Positions 36,276-45,480 of a stretch of 64,000 bases of DNA are shown here, in pieces (within the stretch, counting starts at the first letter, position 1; each line of letters starts with the position of its first letter). The position numbers were made by a program, and so were the translations under genes. The notes under the pieces are model-generated. The model was not told where the DNA came from and ran no database searches. It saw only the letters and a list, made by a program, of their open reading frames with translations. Source of the stretch: Bacteroidetes bacterium 43-16 (GTDB lineage Bacteria; Bacteroidota; Bacteroidia; Chitinophagales; Chitinophagaceae); assembly GCA_001897525.1 (NCBI GenBank), contig MKTB01000005.1, positions 1 through 64,000 of the forward strand. Direction: 5' to 3'.

Positions 36276-37787
36276 CTAAAACCCGTATTCTTCCATTTCC
36301 TCTAATGATCGCTTCAGGATACTGATACATACTTCCAGTTCCTGTTCCTCCAAATGCCCGAAGCCCAGCCTCATGGCAGTAGTATGACGATCCTGGTAAA
36401 GGATATTACGGGGCAGGAATAAATTGTTTGCAGCACATTGCTCCCTGAGCCGGATGAGATTGATCTTCTTTTTGAAGACTACCCAGAAAGCCAGGCCGCC
36501 GCTTGGGGGCAAAAAGGATATCCATGCAGCAAGATGGCTATGCAGCAACCCGGTCATCTTGTCGCGCCGCTCTTTATAGGCTTTGATCGACTTTTTAATA
36601 TGCCGCTGTATGCCGCCATCTTCAATCATTTCGCCTAATGCCTGCTCCATCAAAACATCGCCCTGCCGGTCTATTATACCCAGGAATTTCCTCATTTCTT
36701 TCATCAGGTTTTGAGGGGCGACAATGAAGCCTGTTCTAAAGCCGGGCACCAGGGATTTACCAAAGGAACCAATATAGATCACCATACCTGAAGTATCTAC
36801 GGTCGCCAAAGGAAGCACTTGCTGATGCTCATAATGAAAATCATAATCATGATCATCTTCCACAATAATAAAGCCGTATCGCTGCGACAATTGCAAGAGG
36901 GACATCCTTCTTGCCGCACTAAGGTTAACGGTGGTAGGATAATGATTCTGTGGTATGACATAGACCAGGCGTATAGGATATGTTTTACACAAGGCCTCCA
37001 GCTCTCTTACATTTAAACCTTCCTCATCTACAGGAACGGTAAGGATATTTTTGGTCTGTTTATGAAAGGCCATATTAGCCGCAAAATAACCGGGATTAGA
37101 AACGACCACATAATCCTCCTGCTGCAACAGGATCTCCGAGATAATGAACAGGTTCATTTCAATACTCCGGGTGATGAGTATGTTTTCTTCCGCTATCTTT
37201 AAGCCCCGTGTAGCGTTCAGGTAATTACATAAATGCTGTTTAAAGTACCTGCTCCCCTCCTGGAAATAATAACTCATCTTTTTACGGTTACTCTTCCGCT
37301 TCATGTTGGATGTGTAGAGCCGCGACAGGTCTGTTATCTGCGTCAGCCTGATATCGGGTGTGCCTTCTGTAAACAGGTAGTCGCAGGTACTGTGCTCATA
37401 AAAACTATCCAGGATGATCGAGGTTTTAAATGAAAAACCAGTTTGAGCAGGATAAGCCGGCAATTCTTCTTTATGCTTATTTACCAGGGGCAGTTCCGGA
37501 ATGACAAAAGCCCCTTTATTGGGCCTGATCTGCAACCAACCGAGCGCATACAGTTCCTCATAAGCGGCAGTGACCGTATTCCGGTGCACCTTAAGCACAT
37601 CGGCCAAGGCGCGTGTACCGGGCATTTTCTGGCCGGGAACCAAAAGGCCCTGCTGTATGGCATGAGTGACCTGGTTAGCGATCTGAATAAAAATCGCCAG
37701 GCTACTTTCTCTTTGCAATAAGATGATGCGTTGCAGCAGATTACAAACCGGACTAGCTGATATTTTAAAACCGGCACCTTTACCCAT
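36276..37787 (-). CDS. MocR-family regulator (GntR HTH + aminotransferase-like domain)
   Basis: 503 residues. N-terminal winged helix (about 31-100: PGTRALADVLKVHRNTVTAAYEEL is the GntR recognition region), then a fold-type I aminotransferase-like domain (about 150-495) with ILITRSIEMNL, VYVIPQNHYPTTVNL, VEDDHDYDF and the PLP-binding Lys in GSFGKSL. MocR proteins (GabR, PdxR) sense PLP or its adducts. It is divergent from the biotin operon, whose BioF and BioA use PLP, so it is a candidate biotin-operon regulator; this is inference. Its -7 box (TAGCTTTG, forward 37792-37799) ends 4 bases before the ATG, so the mRNA may be leaderless. Confidence 0.9.
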   Translation of the reverse strand: MGKGAGFKISASPVCNLLQRIILLQRESSLAIFIQIANQVTHAIQQGLLVPGQKMPGTRALADVLKVHRNTVTAAYEELYALGWLQIRPNKGAFVIPELPLVNKHKEELPAYPAQTGFSFKTSIILDSFYEHSTCDYLFTEGTPDIRLTQITDLSRLYTSNMKRKSNRKKMSYYFQEGSRYFKQHLCNYLNATRGLKIAEENILITRSIEMNLFIISEILLQQEDYVVVSNPGYFAANMAFHKQTKNILTVPVDEEGLNVRELEALCKTYPIRLVYVIPQNHYPTTVNLSAARRMSLLQLSQRYGFIIVEDDHDYDFHYEHQQVLPLATVDTSGMVIYIGSFGKSLVPGFRTGFIVAPQNLMKEMRKFLGIIDRQGDVLMEQALGEMIEDGGIQRHIKKSIKAYKERRDKMTGLLHSHLAAWISFLPPSGGLAFWVVFKKKINLIRLREQCAANNLFLPRNILYQDRHTTAMRLGFGHLEEQELEVCISILKRSLEEMEEYGF

Positions 37788-37791
37788 CCGG

Positions 37792-37799
37792 CAAAGCTA
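37792..37799 (-). promoter_or_regulatory. -7 box of the MocR regulator gene
   Basis: TAGCTTTG on the minus strand (extended TAGCTTTGC), 4 bases before the start codon and one base away from the opposite-facing biotin operon box. Confidence 0.55.
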
Positions 37800-37800
37800 A

Positions 37801-37808
37801 TACATTTG
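37801..37808 (+). promoter_or_regulatory. -7 box of the biotin operon
   Basis: TACATTTG fits TAnnTTTG; a TTTA at 37779-37782 with an 18-base spacer could be the -33 element. Transcription would start near 37814, giving a leader of about 110 bases. TAATACATTT (37798-37807) and TTAGTCATTT (37816-37825) are weak direct repeats that could be operator half-sites. Confidence 0.5.
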
Positions 37809-37922
37809 TCTAAAATTAGTCATTTATGGAATGAACCTATATTTTTTGAAGCAACTTCAATACTAAGCAAAGAAAGTATCCATCTTCATTCCACGGGATT
37901 ATTAAAAACAAAAAGCACTTAT

Positions 37923-38555
37923 ATGAAAGAGGCACTTCTGACGATTGTCGGCAACGACAGGCTTCATGCCAAATGGCTCAACACTTTATCTTACCTGGAG
38001 AATACGGGTGCCCGGAAGATTTCGGCCTGTGAAAATGATCACACGACCGATATCGTCCAACTGAAACATGCGGCTGAAGAACACCGCCATGCCTATTATC
38101 TAAAGAAGCAAATCACCAAACTTGAAGCAGGTACATTGGCCCATTATGAAAATAAGGACCTGCTGGCCCCTGTCTTTACCAAACAGTACCTGCAGCGACT
38201 AGACCTTGCCTGCTCCCGCTACCTTGGCGAACGCTACCACATTTCCGGCAACAAATTGAAGTACGCCGCTTACCTCTTTGTCACTTATGCGATAGAGGTA
38301 CGGGCAGATGAATTATACCCTGTTTACCAGGAGGTATTAACAGAGCTGCAATCCAAGGTAATGGTCAAGTCGATCATTCTCGAGGAGGAAGGGCACCTGG
38401 AAGAGATGACACATATGTTGCAGCTCTTTGATGCAGACTGGAATGATCCTGCAAAGGCCATCCTGGAGATAGAAAAAGAGTTGTTCAACAATTGGTTCAG
38501 CGCAGTAGCAGCAGAAACGTTTACTTATGCAGGCATTAAAGCAGCAATGGATTAA
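37923..38555 (+). CDS. Ferritin-like, probable di-iron protein heading the biotin operon
   Basis: 210 residues from the ATG at 37923. A longer in-frame reading from TTG 37806 overlaps the predicted -7 box, so it is rejected. The protein is all-helical by composition, without signal peptide, and shows the di-iron carboxylate pattern of ferritin-like enzymes: Glu26 (SYLENTGARKI), Glu53-x-x-His56 (AAEEHRHAYYL), Glu124 (YAIEVRADEL), Glu155-x-x-His158 (LEEEGHLEEM). Order and spacing resemble ribonucleotide reductase R2 and acyl-ACP desaturases. I do not recognise it as a named biotin gene. Its end overlaps bioF by 29 bases. Because bioC, bioH, bioI, bioW and bioZ are missing here, I infer a role in making pimeloyl-ACP or -CoA; iron handling for BioB is an alternative. 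Confidence 0.8.
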   Translation: MKEALLTIVGNDRLHAKWLNTLSYLENTGARKISACENDHTTDIVQLKHAAEEHRHAYYLKKQITKLEAGTLAHYENKDLLAPVFTKQYLQRLDLACSRYLGERYHISGNKLKYAAYLFVTYAIEVRADELYPVYQEVLTELQSKVMVKSIILEEEGHLEEMTHMLQLFDADWNDPAKAILEIEKELFNNWFSAVAAETFTYAGIKAAMD

Positions 38556-39645
38556 TCAACTGGCTTCCAGGAAAGCGCAGCATACTTACCGCAGCTTAAC
38601 ACCGTACAGCCCGGGTATTGATTTCCGGAGCAATGATTACCTGGGCCTGGCAAAAGATATACAGTTCAGCGAGCTGCTTTTAGAACAGATCAGCAGCCAG
38701 GCGGATTGCTTACAGGGCTCCACCGGATCAAGATTGATCAGCGGCAATTCTGCTTTAGCAGAAGATATAGAATCCTTTATTGCCCGGGAGCATGAGGCAG
38801 CAGCAGCTTTGTTCTTTTCTTCCGGATATAAGGCCAACCTGGCGCTCTTTTCCTGTATGTTAAGCAGGGCCGATACCCTTATTGTGGATGAGTACATCCA
38901 CAGGTCGGTGCATGACGGTTGTCAATTATCAGCAGCCAGGAAATGGAAGTTCCGGCATAATGATGTAGATCACCTGGAGTCTCTATTGCAAAAAGCTTCC
39001 GGCAATGTAGTGGTGGCCATAGAAAGCCTGTATTCTGTTGACGGCAACTTTGCTCCATTAACAGCAATTGTCCGGCTTACCCAAAAATATAATGCCGGCT
39101 TAATTGTTGATGAGGCCCATGCTATGGGTGTCTTCGGGAAAGGCCTGGTCCACCAATACGGGTTGCAGCAGGAAGTGCTGGCCACTGTGGTGACTTATGG
39201 CAAAGCGATGGGACTGGAAGGTGCAGTCGTACTGGGAGATCAAGTCCTGAAAGATTACCTGGTCAACTATGCAAGCCCCTTTATCTATTCAACAGCGCCC
39301 TCGGCCCTCCACCTGCTGCGTATTCAATGTGCCTATCAGTACATCGCAGCGCAGCAGCACTTAGCCATCACCTTAAGCAGCCGTATAGAATTTTTCAGCA
39401 CCTTCAGGCTACATAAAGGTTCTGAGCCGGGAAGTCCCATACAAATCATCCGTTTTTCCAATACGCATGCATTACTGAACCTGCACCTTGAATTAAAAAA
39501 ACACGGACTATTAACCTACCCTCTTTTTTCGCCTACTGTCGCTGAAGGACAGGAGCGCTTAAGGATATGCCTGCATTCATTTAATACAGAAGAGGAGATC
39601 AACGCTCTCTGTAGTATCATCAAAAAATATGCCTATGTCACGTAG
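38527..39645 (+). CDS. bioF: 8-amino-7-oxononanoate synthase
   Basis: 372 residues, a little short for BioF. PLP-dependent alpha-oxoamine synthase features: FRSNDYLGLA (34-42), GSTGSRLISGNS (64-75), ESLYSVDGNFAPL (166-178), VDEAHAMGVFG (194-204, with Asp195 and His198 for the cofactor) and Lys226 in TYGKAMG as the Schiff-base Lys. It condenses L-alanine with pimeloyl thioester to KAPA. The ATG lies 29 bases inside the preceding di-iron gene, and the end overlaps bioD, so translation is coupled. Other alpha-oxoamine synthases (KBL, SPT) are excluded by the biotin context. Confidence 0.95.
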   Translation: MQALKQQWINQLASRKAQHTYRSLTPYSPGIDFRSNDYLGLAKDIQFSELLLEQISSQADCLQGSTGSRLISGNSALAEDIESFIAREHEAAAALFFSSGYKANLALFSCMLSRADTLIVDEYIHRSVHDGCQLSAARKWKFRHNDVDHLESLLQKASGNVVVAIESLYSVDGNFAPLTAIVRLTQKYNAGLIVDEAHAMGVFGKGLVHQYGLQQEVLATVVTYGKAMGLEGAVVLGDQVLKDYLVNYASPFIYSTAPSALHLLRIQCAYQYIAAQQHLAITLSSRIEFFSTFRLHKGSEPGSPIQIIRFSNTHALLNLHLELKKHGLLTYPLFSPTVAEGQERLRICLHSFNTEEEINALCSIIKKYAYVT

Positions 39646-40255
39646 CTATTTCATCAGCGGGATCGGTACCGGTGTCGGTAAAACGATCACTGCAGCGGTA
39701 CTCACGCAACTGTGGGCAGCCGAGTACTGGAAACCGATACAGGCCGGCGACCTGCAGCAGACCGACAGCGATACGGTTCGCAGTTTATCTGATAAAGTAA
39801 AACAGATTCATCCAGAACGGTTCAGGCTAAATCTACCGGCTTCACCACATGAGGCGGCTGCACAAGACGGCTTGTCTATAGCATTGGAGGATTTCGAGCT
39901 GCCGGTAACCAAGCAGCCGCTCATCGTAGAGGGTGCAGGCGGATTATTTGTCCCGATCAATGAGCAGCATTTTATCATTGACCTGATCTCCAGGTTGCAA
40001 TTGCCGGTTATACTGGTGATCAAAGATTACCTGGGCTGCATTAATCATTCGCTGCTCTCCATCAATGCGCTGAGGACACAAGCTATTCCTTTGGCTTATG
40101 TGGTGTTCAATGGAAATTTCAAGCCGGCCACCAGGAGTATTATCCACACACATTTACCGGCACATACGCTGAGCATAGATATCCCGGAAATGGAAATGCC
40201 GGAAGCAGCGGCTATCGAGCGGGTAAGTGAACACATTAAACAACAATTAAACTAA
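39635..40255 (+). CDS. bioD: Dethiobiotin synthetase
   Basis: 206 residues from the ATG at 39635; an ATG two codons upstream (39629) is equally in frame. P-loop GTGVGKT at residues 11-17, KPIQAGDLQQTDSDT, the substrate loop and VEGAGGLFVPIN around residue 98, as in BioD. It closes the ureido ring of DAPA with CO2 and ATP. The first motif reads SGIGTGVGKT where E. coli has TDTGVGKT, a change I regard as acceptable in this phylum. It overlaps bioF by 11 bases and is 10 bases before bioB. Confidence 0.95.
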   Translation: MSRSYFISGIGTGVGKTITAAVLTQLWAAEYWKPIQAGDLQQTDSDTVRSLSDKVKQIHPERFRLNLPASPHEAAAQDGLSIALEDFELPVTKQPLIVEGAGGLFVPINEQHFIIDLISRLQLPVILVIKDYLGCINHSLLSINALRTQAIPLAYVVFNGNFKPATRSIIHTHLPAHTLSIDIPEMEMPEAAAIERVSEHIKQQLN

Positions 40256-40265
40256 ATAACGCATC

Positions 40266-41261
40266 ATGAAACATACCGATGAGCTTCGTCACGACTGGAC
40301 GAAAGCAGAACTGAACGATATCTATAACAGCCCGCTGATGGAACTGGTATACCGTGCCGCAAGCGTGCACCGGGAATGGCATCCGGCGGATGAAGTGCAA
40401 ATTTCTACACTACTTTCTGTAAAGACCGGTGGCTGCCCGGAGGATTGCTCCTATTGCGGACAGGCAGCGCGTTACCATACCGATATTAAAGTGCAGGCAT
40501 TACTGCCGGTAGACACCGTGATCGCTCATGCACAGAAAGCAAAGGACTCGGGTTCTTCCAGGTTCTGCATGGCCGCAGCCTGGCGGGAGGTAAGGGACAA
40601 CAGGGATTTTGACCGGATCATAGAAATGGTGAAAGGGGTGAATGAGCTGGGCCTGGAAGTCTGTTGCACTTTAGGTATGTTGACCGAATCGCAGGCACAA
40701 CGATTGCAGGAGGCCGGTGTCTATGCTTATAACCACAACCTGGACACTTCTGAAGATTACTACAATGCCATTATCTCTACCCGGAATTTTGACAACAGGA
40801 TCAATACGATCAATAATGTCCGGAAAGCGGGTATGACGGTTTGTTCGGGTGGCATTATCGGTTTGGGAGAAAGTACCGCAGACCGTGTAGCTATGTTACT
40901 GACCCTGGCCAATATGGAAAAACACCCGGAATCGGTTCCTATTAATGCATTGGCAAGGGTAAAAGGAACGCCACTGGAAAATAACCCGAAGGTGGACATC
41001 TGGGAAATGGTCCGGATGATCGCTACTGCGCGCATTGCTATGCCTGCTTCTATGGTACGCTTAAGTGCCGGGCGCATAGAAATGACGGAAACAGAGCAGG
41101 CCTGGTGCTTTATGGCCGGGGCTAACTCTATATTTACGGGGGAAAGGGAGACTTTACTGGTGACCCCGAATCCCGGCGTTACAGAAGATATGCAAATGCT
41201 GCACAATCTCGGACTAAAACCTATGTCTGTTCAAAAAGAATCCTCATGTCCGACAACCTGA
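40266..41261 (+). CDS. bioB: Biotin synthase
   Basis: 331 residues. Radical SAM motif Cys57-x3-Cys61-x2-Cys64 ([12 protein letters not shown]), preceded by [12 protein letters not shown] and followed by [35 protein letters not shown] and GGIIGLGES, all standard for BioB. Asn/Arg residues around SMVRLSAGR ligate the [2Fe-2S] cluster that supplies sulfur. It inserts sulfur in dethiobiotin. The C-terminus ([11 protein letters not shown]) overlaps the bioA start by 16 bases. Confidence 0.98.
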
Positions 41262-42511
41262 TCTTACAGGAAAGGGATACTGCCGTTAACTGGCACCCCT
41301 ATACGCAAATGAAAACAGCGGCTACAATCCCTATCGTTTCTGGCCGGGGTAGTTATTTATATGATGCAGACGGTAAGCAGTATATTGATGCGATCTCTTC
41401 CTGGTGGGTCACGCTTCACGGGCATGCACACCCTTATATTGCTCAAAAAGTTTCGGAACAGTTGCAGACGCTCGAGCAGGTGATCTTTGCGGGCTTTACT
41501 CATCCTCAAGCGATAGAACTTTCGGAGCGCCTGCTGGCCTTATTACCCGAGCAGCAAGAGAAGGTATTCTACTCCGACAATGGTTCTACGGCGGTAGAGG
41601 TGGCGGTAAAAATGTGCATCCAGTATTATGCCAACCTCAATATACCCAAGTCTAAGATCTTAGCCTTTAAGAACGGCTATCATGGAGACACTTTCGGGGC
41701 TATGTCGATCAGTGAACGGAATACCTGGACGGCCCCTTTCCGGGAACAACTGTTTGAGGTCATTTATATAGAGGTGCCGGACGAAAGTAATATGGAACAG
41801 GTTAAAGCAACAATAGACCTCCATGCGGCTGATGTGATCTGTTTTATTTACGAACCCCTGGTACAGGGAGCCGGGGGTATGCTGATGCATGAAGCTAAGC
41901 ACCTCTCGGCATTACTCAACCATTGCCGCGCCCAAAACATCCTGCTGATACAGGATGAGATCTTTGTGGGCTTTGGCAGAACGGGCACTTTATTTGCGGC
42001 CGATCAACTGGACTGTGCGCCTGATCTTATGTGTTTTTCTAAAGGCCTTACGGGGGGCACGATGCCCATGGGCATCACTACCGCTAGCCGGGCCATCTAC
42101 CAGGCTTTCTTTTCTGATGATAAATCAAGGTCTTTTTTCCACGGGCATTCTTTTACGGCAAATCCACTCGCCTGTACAGCGGCCCTGGCCAGCCTGGACC
42201 TTTTATTAGCAACAGATACCCGGGAAAGTATCCAGAATATCTGTGATCGGCACCAAGAGTTTATCCGGGAGTTTACAACTGATAAAGCGCGGGTAAGACA
42301 ATGCGGCACGATCCTGGCGATAGAGATCCTTTCAGAGCAAAGTTCTTATTTTAATGCCCTGCAGCCTTATTTATACCAGTATTTTATTGATCGCAATATA
42401 ATTATCCGGCCACTGGGCAATATCATCTACCTGGTGCCGCCTTATTGCATCAGTAAAGCAGACCTGGACTACATTTATGCAACGATTATGGAACTGATCG
42501 ATAAAATATAG
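41246..42511 (+). CDS. bioA: Adenosylmethionine-8-amino-7-oxononanoate aminotransferase
   Basis: 421 residues, usual for BioA. Features: NWHPYTQMK at residues 15-23, [13 protein letters not shown] (51-63), [24 protein letters not shown] with Asp237, and Lys266 in FSKGLTGG as the PLP Lys. It converts KAPA to DAPA with SAM as amino donor. Last gene of the operon: a terminator-like hairpin overlaps its stop codon. Confidence 0.97.
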
Positions 42512-42586: not shown

Positions 42587-43810
42587 ATGAGCAATCGTGT
42601 CGTAATAACCGGCCTGGGCATTTACTCTTGCCTGGGTGTGAACAAGGAAGAGGTCAGGGATTCATTATTTAAAGGTAAGTCAGGCATTGTGTATATCCCT
42701 GAAAGAAAAGCTATAGGTTACCGTTCTGCTTTGGGTGGACTGGTACCTAAGCCTGAGTTAAAAAAACTACTGGACCGCCGCTCCAGGATCATGATGCCGG
42801 AGCAGGCAGAGTTTGCCTACATGGCGACCCTGGAAGCCCTGGAACAAGCCGGATTAGACCCGGACTTTATTCACAAAAATGAAACGGGTATTATCTATGG
42901 TAATGACAGCACAGCGCAGCCTACTATTGAGGGTTTTGATATTGTAAGAGAAAAGAAGGATACCATGATGCTGGGTTCGGGATCGGTCTTCCAGGTACTG
43001 AACTCTACGGTGACCATGAACCTGTCTACGATCTTCAAGCTTACGGGTATTAATTTCTCCCTGAGTGCGGCCTGTGCCAGCGGCTCGCATTCCATTGGTA
43101 TGGGCTACTTATTCATTAAAAATGGCCTGCAGGACCGTGTGATCTGCGGCGGTGCGCAGGAAATCAATAATTATTCTATGGCTAATTTCGATGCCTTAGG
43201 CACCTTTTCCAGCAGGGAATCGGAGCCGGCAAAGGCATCCCGGCCTTTTGACCGCGATCGTGACGGCCTGGTACCGGGCGGTGGCGCTGCTACGGTCATT
43301 ATCGAAAGCCTGGAATCGGCCCAGGCAAGAGGAGCCCATATACTGGCCGAAATTGTGGGTTATGGTTTTTCCTCCAACGGAGAGCATATCTCTAACCCAA
43401 GTGTCAACGGGCAGGTGGTCTCTATCAACAAGGCGCTCAAAGATGCGGGCCTCAGGGCTGATGATATCCAATATGTGAATGCACATGCTACCTCTACTCC
43501 TGCAGGTGATGGTGTGGAGGCAGAAGCCATCTATAATGTCTTCGGGTCTAAAGTCCCCGTAAGCTCTACCAAGTCTATGACGGGGCATGAGTGCTGGATG
43601 GCTGGGGCCAGTGAAATTGTGTACAGCACATTGATGATGCAAAATGATTTTATGGCACCGAATATCAATTTTGAAAACCCGGATGAGCATTCTGCGAAAA
43701 TCAATATCATACCGGAAACCCTGCAGGGAAGCATAGATACGTTCCTGTCCAACTCTTTTGGCTTTGGCGGTACCAACTCTTCTTTGATCGTTACCCGGTT
43801 TATCCCTTAA
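42587..43810 (+). CDS. FabB-like beta-ketoacyl-ACP synthase
   Basis: 407 residues, closest in pattern to E. coli FabB (KAS I): VVITGLGIYSCLG at the start, KGKSGI, catalytic Cys163 in AACASGSHSIG, His300 in NAHATSTPAGD, Lys329 and His334 in STKSMTGHECW, and the closing SNSFGFGGTNSSLIV. It extends acyl-ACP chains with malonyl-ACP. The motif around His300 has Ala where most FabB have Gly. An LpxL-like acyltransferase follows 8 bases later, so the pair may supply a special acyl chain (lipid A, aryl polyene or flexirubin-like product). It could also be the general KAS of this organism. Confidence 0.88.
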   Translation: MSNRVVITGLGIYSCLGVNKEEVRDSLFKGKSGIVYIPERKAIGYRSALGGLVPKPELKKLLDRRSRIMMPEQAEFAYMATLEALEQAGLDPDFIHKNETGIIYGNDSTAQPTIEGFDIVREKKDTMMLGSGSVFQVLNSTVTMNLSTIFKLTGINFSLSAACASGSHSIGMGYLFIKNGLQDRVICGGAQEINNYSMANFDALGTFSSRESEPAKASRPFDRDRDGLVPGGGAATVIIESLESAQARGAHILAEIVGYGFSSNGEHISNPSVNGQVVSINKALKDAGLRADDIQYVNAHATSTPAGDGVEAEAIYNVFGSKVPVSSTKSMTGHECWMAGASEIVYSTLMMQNDFMAPNINFENPDEHSAKINIIPETLQGSIDTFLSNSFGFGGTNSSLIVTRFIP

Positions 43811-43818
43811 ACAAACAG

Positions 43819-44715
43819 ATGCTATCTTATTACCTATTTTACCCGATCTTATATTTACTATCTCTGCTTCCCCTGAGGATACTGTACCTGTTTGCCAGCT
43901 TTTTTAAGTTTGTCTTATTTGACTGCATCGGCTACCGGAAGAAGGTAATCTTAACTAATCTGCGTAATTCTTTCCCGGAGAAGAGCGAAAAAGAGATCCA
44001 GGTGATTGCACAAAAATTTTACCTGTATTTCTGTGATCTTATATTCGAGATCATCAAGAGCCTTTCTATGTCTTACAAAGAACTGGAAAGAAGATTCCAT
44101 ATCCCTGAAGAACTCTGGAATATACTACAAGGCTTTGCAGACAAAAACCAGCCTGTTCTTGTGGCGATCGGGCATCATGGCAACTGGGAATGGGCAGGGA
44201 ATGCCTATAGCGTTAAAGCGCAACATACTTTTTATGCCATCTTCAGACCGCTGCATAATAAAGGGTTCAATAAGATCGTGGAGAAGGTGCGCACCCGGTT
44301 CAAAACAAAACTGATCACTGACCGGGATGTCATAGGCGCTATGAGAAAAATAAGGGAGCAGAATGTATTAAGTGCTACTGTTTTCCTTACAGATCAGACC
44401 CCTTCTGGTAAAAATATGTACTGGACTAAGTTCCTGAACCAGGATACACCGGTCTTCTGGGGCGTGGAGCGTATTGCGCATAAGTTTAATTACCCTATTA
44501 TCTATGCCACTTTCATAAGGGAAAAAAGGGGTTATTACAAGGCCAAGGCTTATGTATTGGTGGACGATCCTAAAAAGTACCCGGAAGAAGGCGCTATATC
44601 TGAGCTGCATACCCGGGCTATAGAAGCGGCTATTCTAAACCAGCCGGAAACATGGCTGTGGACACACAGAAGATGGAAAAGAAAAAAGCCCGGCAATATG
44701 CCGGGCCAGTCTTAG
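43819..44715 (+). CDS. LpxL/HtrB-like lysophospholipid or lipid A acyltransferase
   Basis: 298 residues. N-terminal membrane anchor (about 3-35, FYPILYLLSLLPLRILYLFASFFKF), then the lipid A acyltransferase fold with the HxxxxE-type active-site motif in IGHHGNWEWAG (about residue 113) and FLTDQTPSGKNMYWTKFL followed by DTPVFWGVERIA. It transfers an acyl chain from ACP to a lipid A or lysolipid acceptor at the inner face of the membrane. The last codons (KKPGNMPGQS) also encode a hairpin that terminates the opposite gene. Confidence 0.88.
   Translation: MLSYYLFYPILYLLSLLPLRILYLFASFFKFVLFDCIGYRKKVILTNLRNSFPEKSEKEIQVIAQKFYLYFCDLIFEIIKSLSMSYKELERRFHIPEELWNILQGFADKNQPVLVAIGHHGNWEWAGNAYSVKAQHTFYAIFRPLHNKGFNKIVEKVRTRFKTKLITDRDVIGAMRKIREQNVLSATVFLTDQTPSGKNMYWTKFLNQDTPVFWGVERIAHKFNYPIIYATFIREKRGYYKAKAYVLVDDPKKYPEEGAISELHTRAIEAAILNQPETWLWTHRRWKRKKPGNMPGQS
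44688..44706 (-). terminator. Terminator of the methyltransferase gene, inside the acyltransferase CDS
   Basis: Stem GCCCGGCA / TGCCGGGC (44688-44695 with 44699-44706) followed on the minus strand by TTTTTTCTTTTCC. It lies 33 bases after the methyltransferase stop and within the last ten codons of the convergent acyltransferase gene. Confidence 0.75.
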
Positions 44716-44739: not shown

Positions 44740-45480
44740 TTAATGCTTTTCAAAGATCATGATGAGCCTTGGAGATACCTCAACATTAAAGGGATTAAGC
44801 TCATAATCACCGAAGGTGGTGATGAGCTGTAAGCCGCATCGCTCAAACAGTTCTTTAAAATCGGGCAGGCGGAATTCTGACACCACTTCTTCGAAGCTGT
44901 AGGGCTTGCCGGAGGCATCCTTAAACTGGATGGTCTTAATGATCTTCCCGTTCTCTGATTTGCGGTGTATATTAAAGCATATCCCCTCTACTTCCACTAC
45001 TTCCTCAGCCACCAACTGATCTTTCACCCTGTCTACATTCATGTAATCGATCATCAGCCGGCCGCCTGGTTTCAGGCTCTTGGCAAAGGAATCTGCTGCG
45101 ATCACATTGTCCCGGTAGTGTTGAAAATAACCAAAACTGGTAAAAAAGTTGAAGGCATAATCAAAGTAGTTCAGGCGGAATACGTTACGCATATCCTGTT
45201 TATAGAAGGCCAGGTTTTCCTTAGCCAGCTTCTGGGCTTTCTGTATACGCTGCTCAGAGAGATCGATACCGATCACTTCGTGCACATAATTTTTCATGTA
45301 AGCGGCATGCCTGCCATCGCCACAGGCGATATCCAGTACGCTGGATGCTGCTGCAGGTTGCAGCCAGGCAAATAATTTATCAATAAAAGCGCTAGCTTCA
45401 TGCTCATCTCTGCGCTGGTAAAGCATCCCATGATAAGGGGAATCAAACCAGCTTTCAAACCATTCTTTTGTCTCGGTCAT
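44740..45480 (-). CDS. Class I SAM-dependent methyltransferase
   Basis: 246 residues. Motif I VLDIACGDGRHAAYM at about residues 48-62, then VIGIDLSEQRIQKAQKLA, a middle acidic turn, and KPGGRLMIDYMNV (motif post-III). The N-terminal KEWFESWFDSPYHGMLYQ is frequent in a widespread Bacteroidota group of unknown substrate. I considered BioC because of the nearby biotin genes, but the gene faces the other way, is separated by two genes, and shows no specific BioC feature. Monocistronic, with its own terminator. Confidence 0.85.
   Translation of the reverse strand: MTETKEWFESWFDSPYHGMLYQRRDEHEASAFIDKLFAWLQPAAASSVLDIACGDGRHAAYMKNYVHEVIGIDLSEQRIQKAQKLAKENLAFYKQDMRNVFRLNYFDYAFNFFTSFGYFQHYRDNVIAADSFAKSLKPGGRLMIDYMNVDRVKDQLVAEEVVEVEGICFNIHRKSENGKIIKTIQFKDASGKPYSFEEVVSEFRLPDFKELFERCGLQLITTFGDYELNPFNVEVSPRLIMIFEKH

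What the first reader, a model, noticed from the sequence alone, without database searches (positions are those of the whole stretch)
37923..38555. Unrecognised ferritin-like di-iron protein is the first gene of a biotin operon
Seen: a 210-residue helical protein with Glu26, Glu53-xx-His56, Glu124 and Glu155-xx-His158, the six-ligand order of R2-like di-iron carboxylate proteins and acyl-ACP desaturases, overlapping bioF by 29 bases in a five-gene operon that ends with bioA. Known: BioF, BioA, BioD and BioB cover all steps from pimeloyl thioester to biotin; pimeloyl thioester is made by BioC-BioH (or BioH substitutes), by BioI (P450 cleavage of acyl-ACP) with BioW, or by BioZ. None of those is in the cluster. 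Inference: this protein could use O2 and a di-iron centre to cut or oxidise an acyl-ACP to pimeloyl-ACP, a non-haem counterpart of BioI. Alternative: iron or redox support for BioB. Whether the family has since been described I cannot check.
Basis: partly seen in the sequence, partly recalled or inferred. Interest (0 to 1): 0.88.

Follow-up and report, generated by a model that had tools for sequence, protein, structure and literature searches.

The report
BioE biotin gene, already published

Summary
ORF 37923-38555 (+) encodes a 210-residue helical protein with the six ligands E26, E53xxH56, E125 (not Glu124) and E155xxH158. It overlaps bioF by 29 bases and starts a bioE-F-D-B-A gene row.

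The proposed function is supported, but it is not new. The family is BioE, a di-iron oxygenase that cleaves long-chain acyl-ACP or acyl-CoA at C7-C8 to pimeloyl thioester (PMC12915131, Dec 2025; primary report doi 10.1073/pnas.2501226122, not held here). The six ligands have the residue numbers printed for Elizabethkingia meningoseptica BioE and the spacing of Chlamydia psittaci BioE. Three Elizabethkingia homologues are 57% identical. A conserved CCGG-rich putative operator lies at 37748-37794.

The genome has no BioW or P450 match, and no BioC or BioH match over the (strict) curated cut-offs. All 10 BioE-positive genomes of 59 relatives carry BioA and BioB. Added here: the operator, alternative gene orders, and BioE-less relatives whose pimelate source I could not find.

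The parts
37923..38555 (+). bioE: di-iron oxygenase, 210 aa; ligands E26, E53, H56, E125, E155, H158
   Evidence: model mean pLDDT 93.3, all helical
36276..37787 (-). bioL orthologue: MocR-type repressor (GntR HTH + aminotransferase-like domain), divergent from bioE
   Evidence: Pfam GntR and Aminotran_1_2; 54-55% identical to the divergent gene of three Elizabethkingia loci; published R50 and K340 of BioL fall on R50 and K340 of the E. miricola gene and align with R59 and K344 here
37748..37794 (+). putative BioL operator: CCGGACTA-N15-CCGGCACC-N9-CCGGCAA; overlaps the first codons of the bioL frame
   Evidence: only match (up to 3 mismatches) in the own genome; a looser form of it upstream of bioE in 61 of 61 loci with divergent bioL and 6 of 19 without
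37801..37808 (+). possible -7 element TACATTTG just after the operator (consensus TAnnTTTG recalled, not from a call)
   Evidence: sequence; TAnnTTTG lies within 25 bases after the operator in 67 of 67 loci that have the operator, at one same offset in 62; the window's offset is one base longer
38527..39645 (+). bioF: 8-amino-7-oxononanoate synthase-like
   Evidence: TIGR00858 294 bits, below its equivalog cut-off of 426; overlaps bioE by 29 bases
39629..40255 (+). bioD: dethiobiotin synthase
   Evidence: TIGR00347 111.5 bits, cut-off 83.3
40266..41261 (+). bioB: biotin synthase
   Evidence: TIGR00433 399.5 bits, cut-off 225
41246..42511 (+). bioA: adenosylmethionine-8-amino-7-oxononanoate transaminase
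   Evidence: TIGR00508 522.4 bits, cut-off 405

Best explanation
The gene is bioE. Its product is a non-haem di-iron oxygenase that uses O2 and reducing equivalents to cleave a long-chain acyl-ACP and/or acyl-CoA between C7 and C8. This gives pimeloyl-ACP or pimeloyl-CoA, the substrate of BioF in the same gene row. The divergent MocR-type gene is the repressor BioL, which most likely acts at the conserved operator between the two genes. Shown here: homology, ligand identity and spacing, gene context, the conserved operator, and no BioW or P450 match and no BioC or BioH match over curated cut-offs in this genome. Shown in print (PMC12915131): cleavage of C14-C18 acyl-ACP to pimeloyl-ACP by the E. 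meningoseptica and C. psittaci proteins, about two Fe per monomer and loss of complementation on mutation of the six ligands (C. psittaci protein), O2 dependence, and repression by BioL (Elizabethkingia). Inferred for this organism: the reaction, the substrate preference (ACP or CoA), operon transcription and the operator's function.
For: Ligand residue numbers are those printed for E. meningoseptica BioE and the spacing is that of C. psittaci BioE. Identity is 57% to three Elizabethkingia loci, 75% to L026 and 56-65% to the other 76 loci. The four published inhibitor-contact residues and 10 of 11 published channel residues (C. psittaci position minus 15) are the same residue in the window protein. 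Of 80 loci, 74 have at least one of bioA/B/D/F or bioL nearby and 61 have divergent bioL. All 10 genomes with bioE among 59 relatives (own genome included) have both BioA and BioB over cut-off; 0 of the 34 lacking either has bioE (Fisher p 5e-5, kinship not corrected). The own genome has no BioW and no P450 match, and no BioC (best 66 of 185 bits) or BioH (best 62 of 207 bits) over cut-off.
Against: No activity test exists for this protein. The structure search found no match at E <= 0.001; the best is AetD (E 0.013), with cyanobacterial aldehyde deformylating oxygenase further down (E 0.19), so the fold alone does not name the reaction. Four of seven positions of the published CoA-binding face differ from the printed residues (Y24, Q46, K87, Q91), so substrate choice may differ. 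In 6 of 80 loci no bio gene was found in the DNA held around bioE (one of these, L096, is cut off by a contig end). The BioC and BioH cut-offs are strict (each reached in 1 of 14 control genomes), so a divergent BioC or BioH is not excluded; one bioE carrier, G019, has a BioC-like match at E 9.6e-22 below the cut-off. BioZ and the BioH substitutes were not searched for. 15 of 25 relatives with BioA and BioB lack bioE.
Confidence: 0.94

Rival explanations
1. BioE homologue whose substrate or cleavage position has shifted (for example strict ACP specificity, or another acyl chain), still feeding the bio pathway. Partly nested in the best explanation, so the odds are not exclusive.
For: Four of seven positions of the published CoA-binding face differ from the printed E. 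meningoseptica residues (Y24, Q46, K87, Q91); position 46 is Gln in E. miricola too, so three differ from E. miricola. Published BioEs already differ in ACP and CoA use (PMC12915131).
Against: All six ligands and 10 of 11 channel residues are the same.
Confidence: 0.15
2. Iron or redox support protein for the iron-sulfur enzyme BioB.
For: In 11 of 80 loci bioE stands between bioL and bioB with no other bio gene found. Weak sub-threshold similarity to encapsulin ferritin-like cargo proteins.
Against: Published complementation of E. coli delta-bioH and in vitro cleavage by two BioEs. 18 of 28 relatives with BioB over cut-off have no bioE match, so BioB does not need it in general.
Confidence: 0.02
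3. Unrelated di-iron enzyme (aldehyde deformylase, haem-oxygenase-like oxidase or iron store) that merely sits beside bio genes.
For: Weak structural matches to AetD, UndA, aldehyde deformylating oxygenase and Dps-like proteins.
Against: Recurrent linkage to bio genes and bioL in many genera, residue-level agreement with functionally tested BioEs, and a shared operator.
Confidence: 0.02

Closest known systems
BioE (Elizabethkingia meningoseptica, Chlamydia psittaci), PMC12915131
   Same: Six di-iron ligands with the same numbers (E. meningoseptica) or spacing (both), 10 of 11 channel residues, place in front of bioF, divergent MocR regulator as in Elizabethkingia; the paper lists Chitinophagaceae among BioE carriers.
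   Different: Four of seven published CoA-facing residues differ. All five bio genes here lie in one row with overlaps or a short gap; the paper describes separate bioEFD and bioBA promoters for Elizabethkingia.
BioI (cytochrome P450, Bacillus subtilis)
   Same: Same overall job as published for BioE: oxidative cleavage of acyl-ACP to pimeloyl-ACP.
   Different: Haem P450, a distinct enzyme family; no P450 match in this genome.
Cyanobacterial aldehyde deformylating oxygenase (5ux2, 5k53)
   Same: Helical di-iron enzyme to which the paper compares BioE; E/ExxH/E/ExxH ligand order (recalled).
   Different: Weak structural match only (5ux2_B: E 0.19, TM 0.43); different reaction.
AetD and UndA (haem-oxygenase-like di-iron oxidases; class name recalled)
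   Same: AetD is the best structural match (E 0.013), UndA a weaker one (E 0.69); UndA is solved with Fe and lauric acid.
   Different: 14% identity and rmsd 11.4 (best AetD row) and 7.6 (UndA), i.e. poor superposition; ligand order differs (recalled).

Membership tests
BioE | Six ligands E26, E53, H56, E125, E155, H158 (E. meningoseptica numbering) | tested here: met
   invariant in 27 sequences
BioE | >40% identity and >85% coverage to E. meningoseptica BioE (the published search rule) | tested here: met
   Tested by proxy: 57% to E. miricola L032 and Elizabethkingia sp. L039 (window residues 1-207 of 210) and E. occulta L045 (1-202); E. meningoseptica itself was not among the 80 loci kept
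BioE | Acyl-channel residues needed by C. psittaci BioE | tested here: met
   10 of 11 identical at position minus 15; the eleventh (L205) is Asn here and variable in the family
BioE | Linkage to bioF/D/B/A and, in many species, bioL | tested here: met
BioE | Replaces BioC-BioH in E. coli; C7-C8 cleavage; O2 and two Fe | not testable with these tools
   Published for other members (PMC12915131)
BioL (MocR-type regulator) | GntR HTH + aminotransferase-like domain, R50 and K340 | tested here: met
BioL (MocR-type regulator) | Binds the bioE promoter and represses | not testable with these tools
   Only a conserved putative operator was found
Haem-oxygenase-like or ferritin-like superfamily | Significant fold match | tested here: inconclusive
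   397 matches at E <= 10 (50 shown), none at E <= 0.001; both kinds of fold appear among the best

The most novel reading that the evidence does not exclude
BioE in this Taibaiella-like lineage may differ in carrier preference from the tested Elizabethkingia enzyme (changed CoA-facing residues). The BioL regulon is wired through a three-part CCGG operator that overlaps the start of bioL, so that repressor and pathway are controlled from one site. Separately, the BioA+/BioB+ relatives that have neither a BioE match nor a BioC over cut-off (15 of 25 here) may use a further, still undescribed pimelate source.
Probability: 0.3. Interest if true: 0.45.

Novelty: already known. Interest (0 to 1): 0.25.

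Why it matters
The BioE route is a recent addition to the known ways of making pimelate for biotin and a proposed antibacterial target (PMC12915131). This locus shows that the route and its BioL control are present in a Taibaiella-like Chitinophagaceae genome. It adds a conserved candidate operator and several gene orders that could be tested. It also shows that the Pfam and NCBIfam copies scanned here do not yet name the family, so it will keep being 'rediscovered'.

Tried and rejected
Rejected: iron or redox helper of BioB (18 of 28 BioB-positive relatives lack a bioE match); chance motif; using the fold match as the deciding argument (structural search inconclusive).

Led nowhere: curated family searches for the protein and PDB sequence searches gave nothing over a curated cut-off or at E <= 0.001. 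Looking beside bioB and bioA in BioE-less relatives for a replacement gene gave no recurrent candidate that I could recognise (by shared neighbours only, not a full pathway search). A short inverted repeat in the intergenic region (37827-37835 / 37885-37893) was not pursued, since the conserved operator lies elsewhere. A first motif script had a wrong pattern and returned 0 of 80; one search corrects it.

Limits: 80 of 510 related loci were kept by the tool and examined. In the phylum sample 14 of 395 genomes (own genome included) had a match. BioE absence in relatives rests on the single-protein search; of the 15 BioA+/BioB+ genomes without it, three (G018, G025, G033) are listed as without a match in the profile search too, the others were not shown there. 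Some relatives are incomplete (for example G049, 57%). BioZ and the BioH substitutes BioG, BioJ, BioK and BioV were not searched for. Co-occurrence counts are not corrected for kinship. The primary BioE paper (PNAS 2025) was not held and is cited from the reference list of PMC12915131; the supplements were not read.

Full report
OBSERVATION. The ORF at 37923-38555 (+) encodes 210 residues. The next gene, bioF, starts at 38527, inside the ORF, giving the 29-base overlap. bioD, bioB and bioA follow with overlaps or a short gap, and each passes its curated NCBIfam cut-off. For the bioF gene the bioF model is the best match but the score is below its equivalog cut-off.

SURROUNDINGS. Downstream of bioA lie a beta-ketoacyl synthase and a lipid A acyltransferase-like gene, which I take to be unrelated; this was not followed up.

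RELATIVES. Among 59 related genomes (own genome included), 10 have the gene; in an even sample of the phylum, 14 of 395. A scan of the collection of 84,980 species genomes found 510 related places; the best 80 were kept. The closest named one is a Taibaiella sp. MAG (75%). The four genomes placed in the same genus as the own genome (G001-G004) all have the gene, with bioB within about 3 kb. Elizabethkingia miricola, E. occulta and an Elizabethkingia sp. are 57% identical; the other 76 loci are 56-65%. Across the 80 loci the gene orders found are: divergent bioL with bioE-F-D-B-A in 49; the same without bioA in 1 (L056, a short contig piece); divergent bioL with bioE-bioB in 11; bioE-F-D-B-A without adjacent bioL in 6; bioE-F-D-A in 3; bioA-bioE in 4; no bio gene in 6. 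In relatives G005, G029 and G030 bioE directly follows bioA.

LIGANDS AND STRUCTURE. All six ligands are invariant in 27 aligned sequences. The exact spacing 27-3-69-30-3 is found in 79 of 80 loci; the eightieth (L069) misses only because of a neighbouring Ala-to-Ser change. The AlphaFold2 model is all-helical with mean pLDDT 93.3. Foldseek against the PDB gave no match at E <= 0.001. The best is AetD (0.013); further down come cyanobacterial aldehyde deformylating oxygenase (0.19), Dps-like proteins, TenA and UndA, mixed with unrelated helical proteins. So the structure says 'helical, like di-iron enzymes' but does not settle ferritin-like versus haem-oxygenase-like. A second structural aligner was not available.

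LITERATURE. Full-text searches found PMC12915131 (Adv Sci, 12 Dec 2025), of which I read the abstract, the introduction, results 2.1-2.4, the first part of the discussion, some passages and the first part of the reference list. It describes BioE as a di-iron oxygenase that turns long-chain acyl-ACP or acyl-CoA into pimeloyl thioester. The ligands given are E26, E53, H56, E125, E155, H158 in E. meningoseptica and E41, E68, H71, E140, E170, H173 in C. psittaci. It reports complementation of E. coli lacking bioH, bioC or both, O2 dependence, and repression by the MocR regulator BioL (R50, K340), and it lists Chitinophagaceae among carriers. The primary report is Xu et al., PNAS 2025 (doi 10.1073/pnas.2501226122), known to me only through that paper; it is not held.

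MEMBERSHIP. The window protein has the same six residue numbers, the four published inhibitor-contact residues and 10 of 11 channel residues; four of seven CoA-face residues differ from those printed. The regulator aligns with the E. miricola gene, whose residues 50 and 340 (counted from the ATG I chose for it) are the published Arg and Lys; the window equivalents are R59 and K344. I therefore file the pair as BioE and BioL. Activity itself was not testable.

OPERATOR. A 47-base element, CCGGACTA-N15-CCGGCACC-N9-CCGGCAA, lies at 37748-37794. It overlaps the first codons of the bioL frame and is followed by TACATTTG, which fits the Bacteroidetes -7 consensus TAnnTTTG (recalled). It is the only match with up to 3 mismatches in the 4.7 Mb genome. 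A looser form stands within 260 bases upstream of bioE in 61 of 61 loci with divergent bioL and in 6 of 19 without; TAnnTTTG follows within 25 bases in 67 of these 67, at the same offset in 62. Shuffled whole loci gave 27 hits in 400, counting any position and both strands. Against this: the looser pattern also had 19 other hits in the bioL-bearing loci and 1 in the rest, and it found no second site upstream of bioB or bioA in any locus, although the paper reports BioL binding at the bioBA promoter of Elizabethkingia. The paper speaks of a palindromic probe of about 50 bp in the bioEFD promoter, possibly the same element; I did not see its sequence.

PATHWAY LOGIC. This genome has no BioW match and no P450 match. 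Its best BioC match is 66 bits against a cut-off of 185 and its best BioH match 62 against 207; these look like general methyltransferases and hydrolases. Each of these two cut-offs is reached in only 1 of 14 control genomes, so divergent forms are not excluded. Among 59 relatives, 28 have BioB over cut-off, 28 have BioA and 25 have both. All 10 bioE carriers are among the 25, and none among the 34 others (Fisher p 5e-5, kinship not corrected). No relative has BioC over cut-off; 7 of 59 have a weaker BioC match at E <= 1e-20, one of them the bioE carrier G019. That leaves 15 apparent biotin makers without a BioE match or curated BioC; I found no recurrent neighbour of their bioB or bioA that would replace it.

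VERDICT. Interest is reduced to the modest additions: the operator, the gene-order variety, the CoA-face differences, and the open question of the BioE-less relatives.

Noticed in passing
relatives G006, G010, G011, G013, G017, G018, G020, G025, G033, G042, G043, G045, G047, G053, G055: 15 genomes with BioA and BioB over cut-off but no BioE match and no BioC over cut-off; no recurrent neighbour of bioB or bioA suggests a replacement.
   Followed up: partly
L054, L079, L082, L092, L096, L097 (Pedobacter): bioE without a bio gene in the DNA held (about 7 kb each side; L096 is cut short downstream). In L054, L079 and L097 it lies between a gene that looks like a lipoyl-bearing 2-oxoacid dehydrogenase E2 and a thioredoxin-like gene (read by eye).
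   Followed up: partly
Chitinophaga loci such as L028, L033, L035, L037, L043: Short cluster bioL / bioE-bioB with no bioF, bioD or bioA found in the same locus (L028 is cut short by a contig end).
   Followed up: no
42587-44715 (+): Beta-ketoacyl synthase and lipid A acyltransferase-like genes start about 75 bases after bioA on the same strand; probably a separate lipid or pigment cluster.
   Followed up: no
44740-45480 (-): Class I methyltransferase that matches the BioC model weakly (32 bits, cut-off 185); not taken as BioC.
   Followed up: partly
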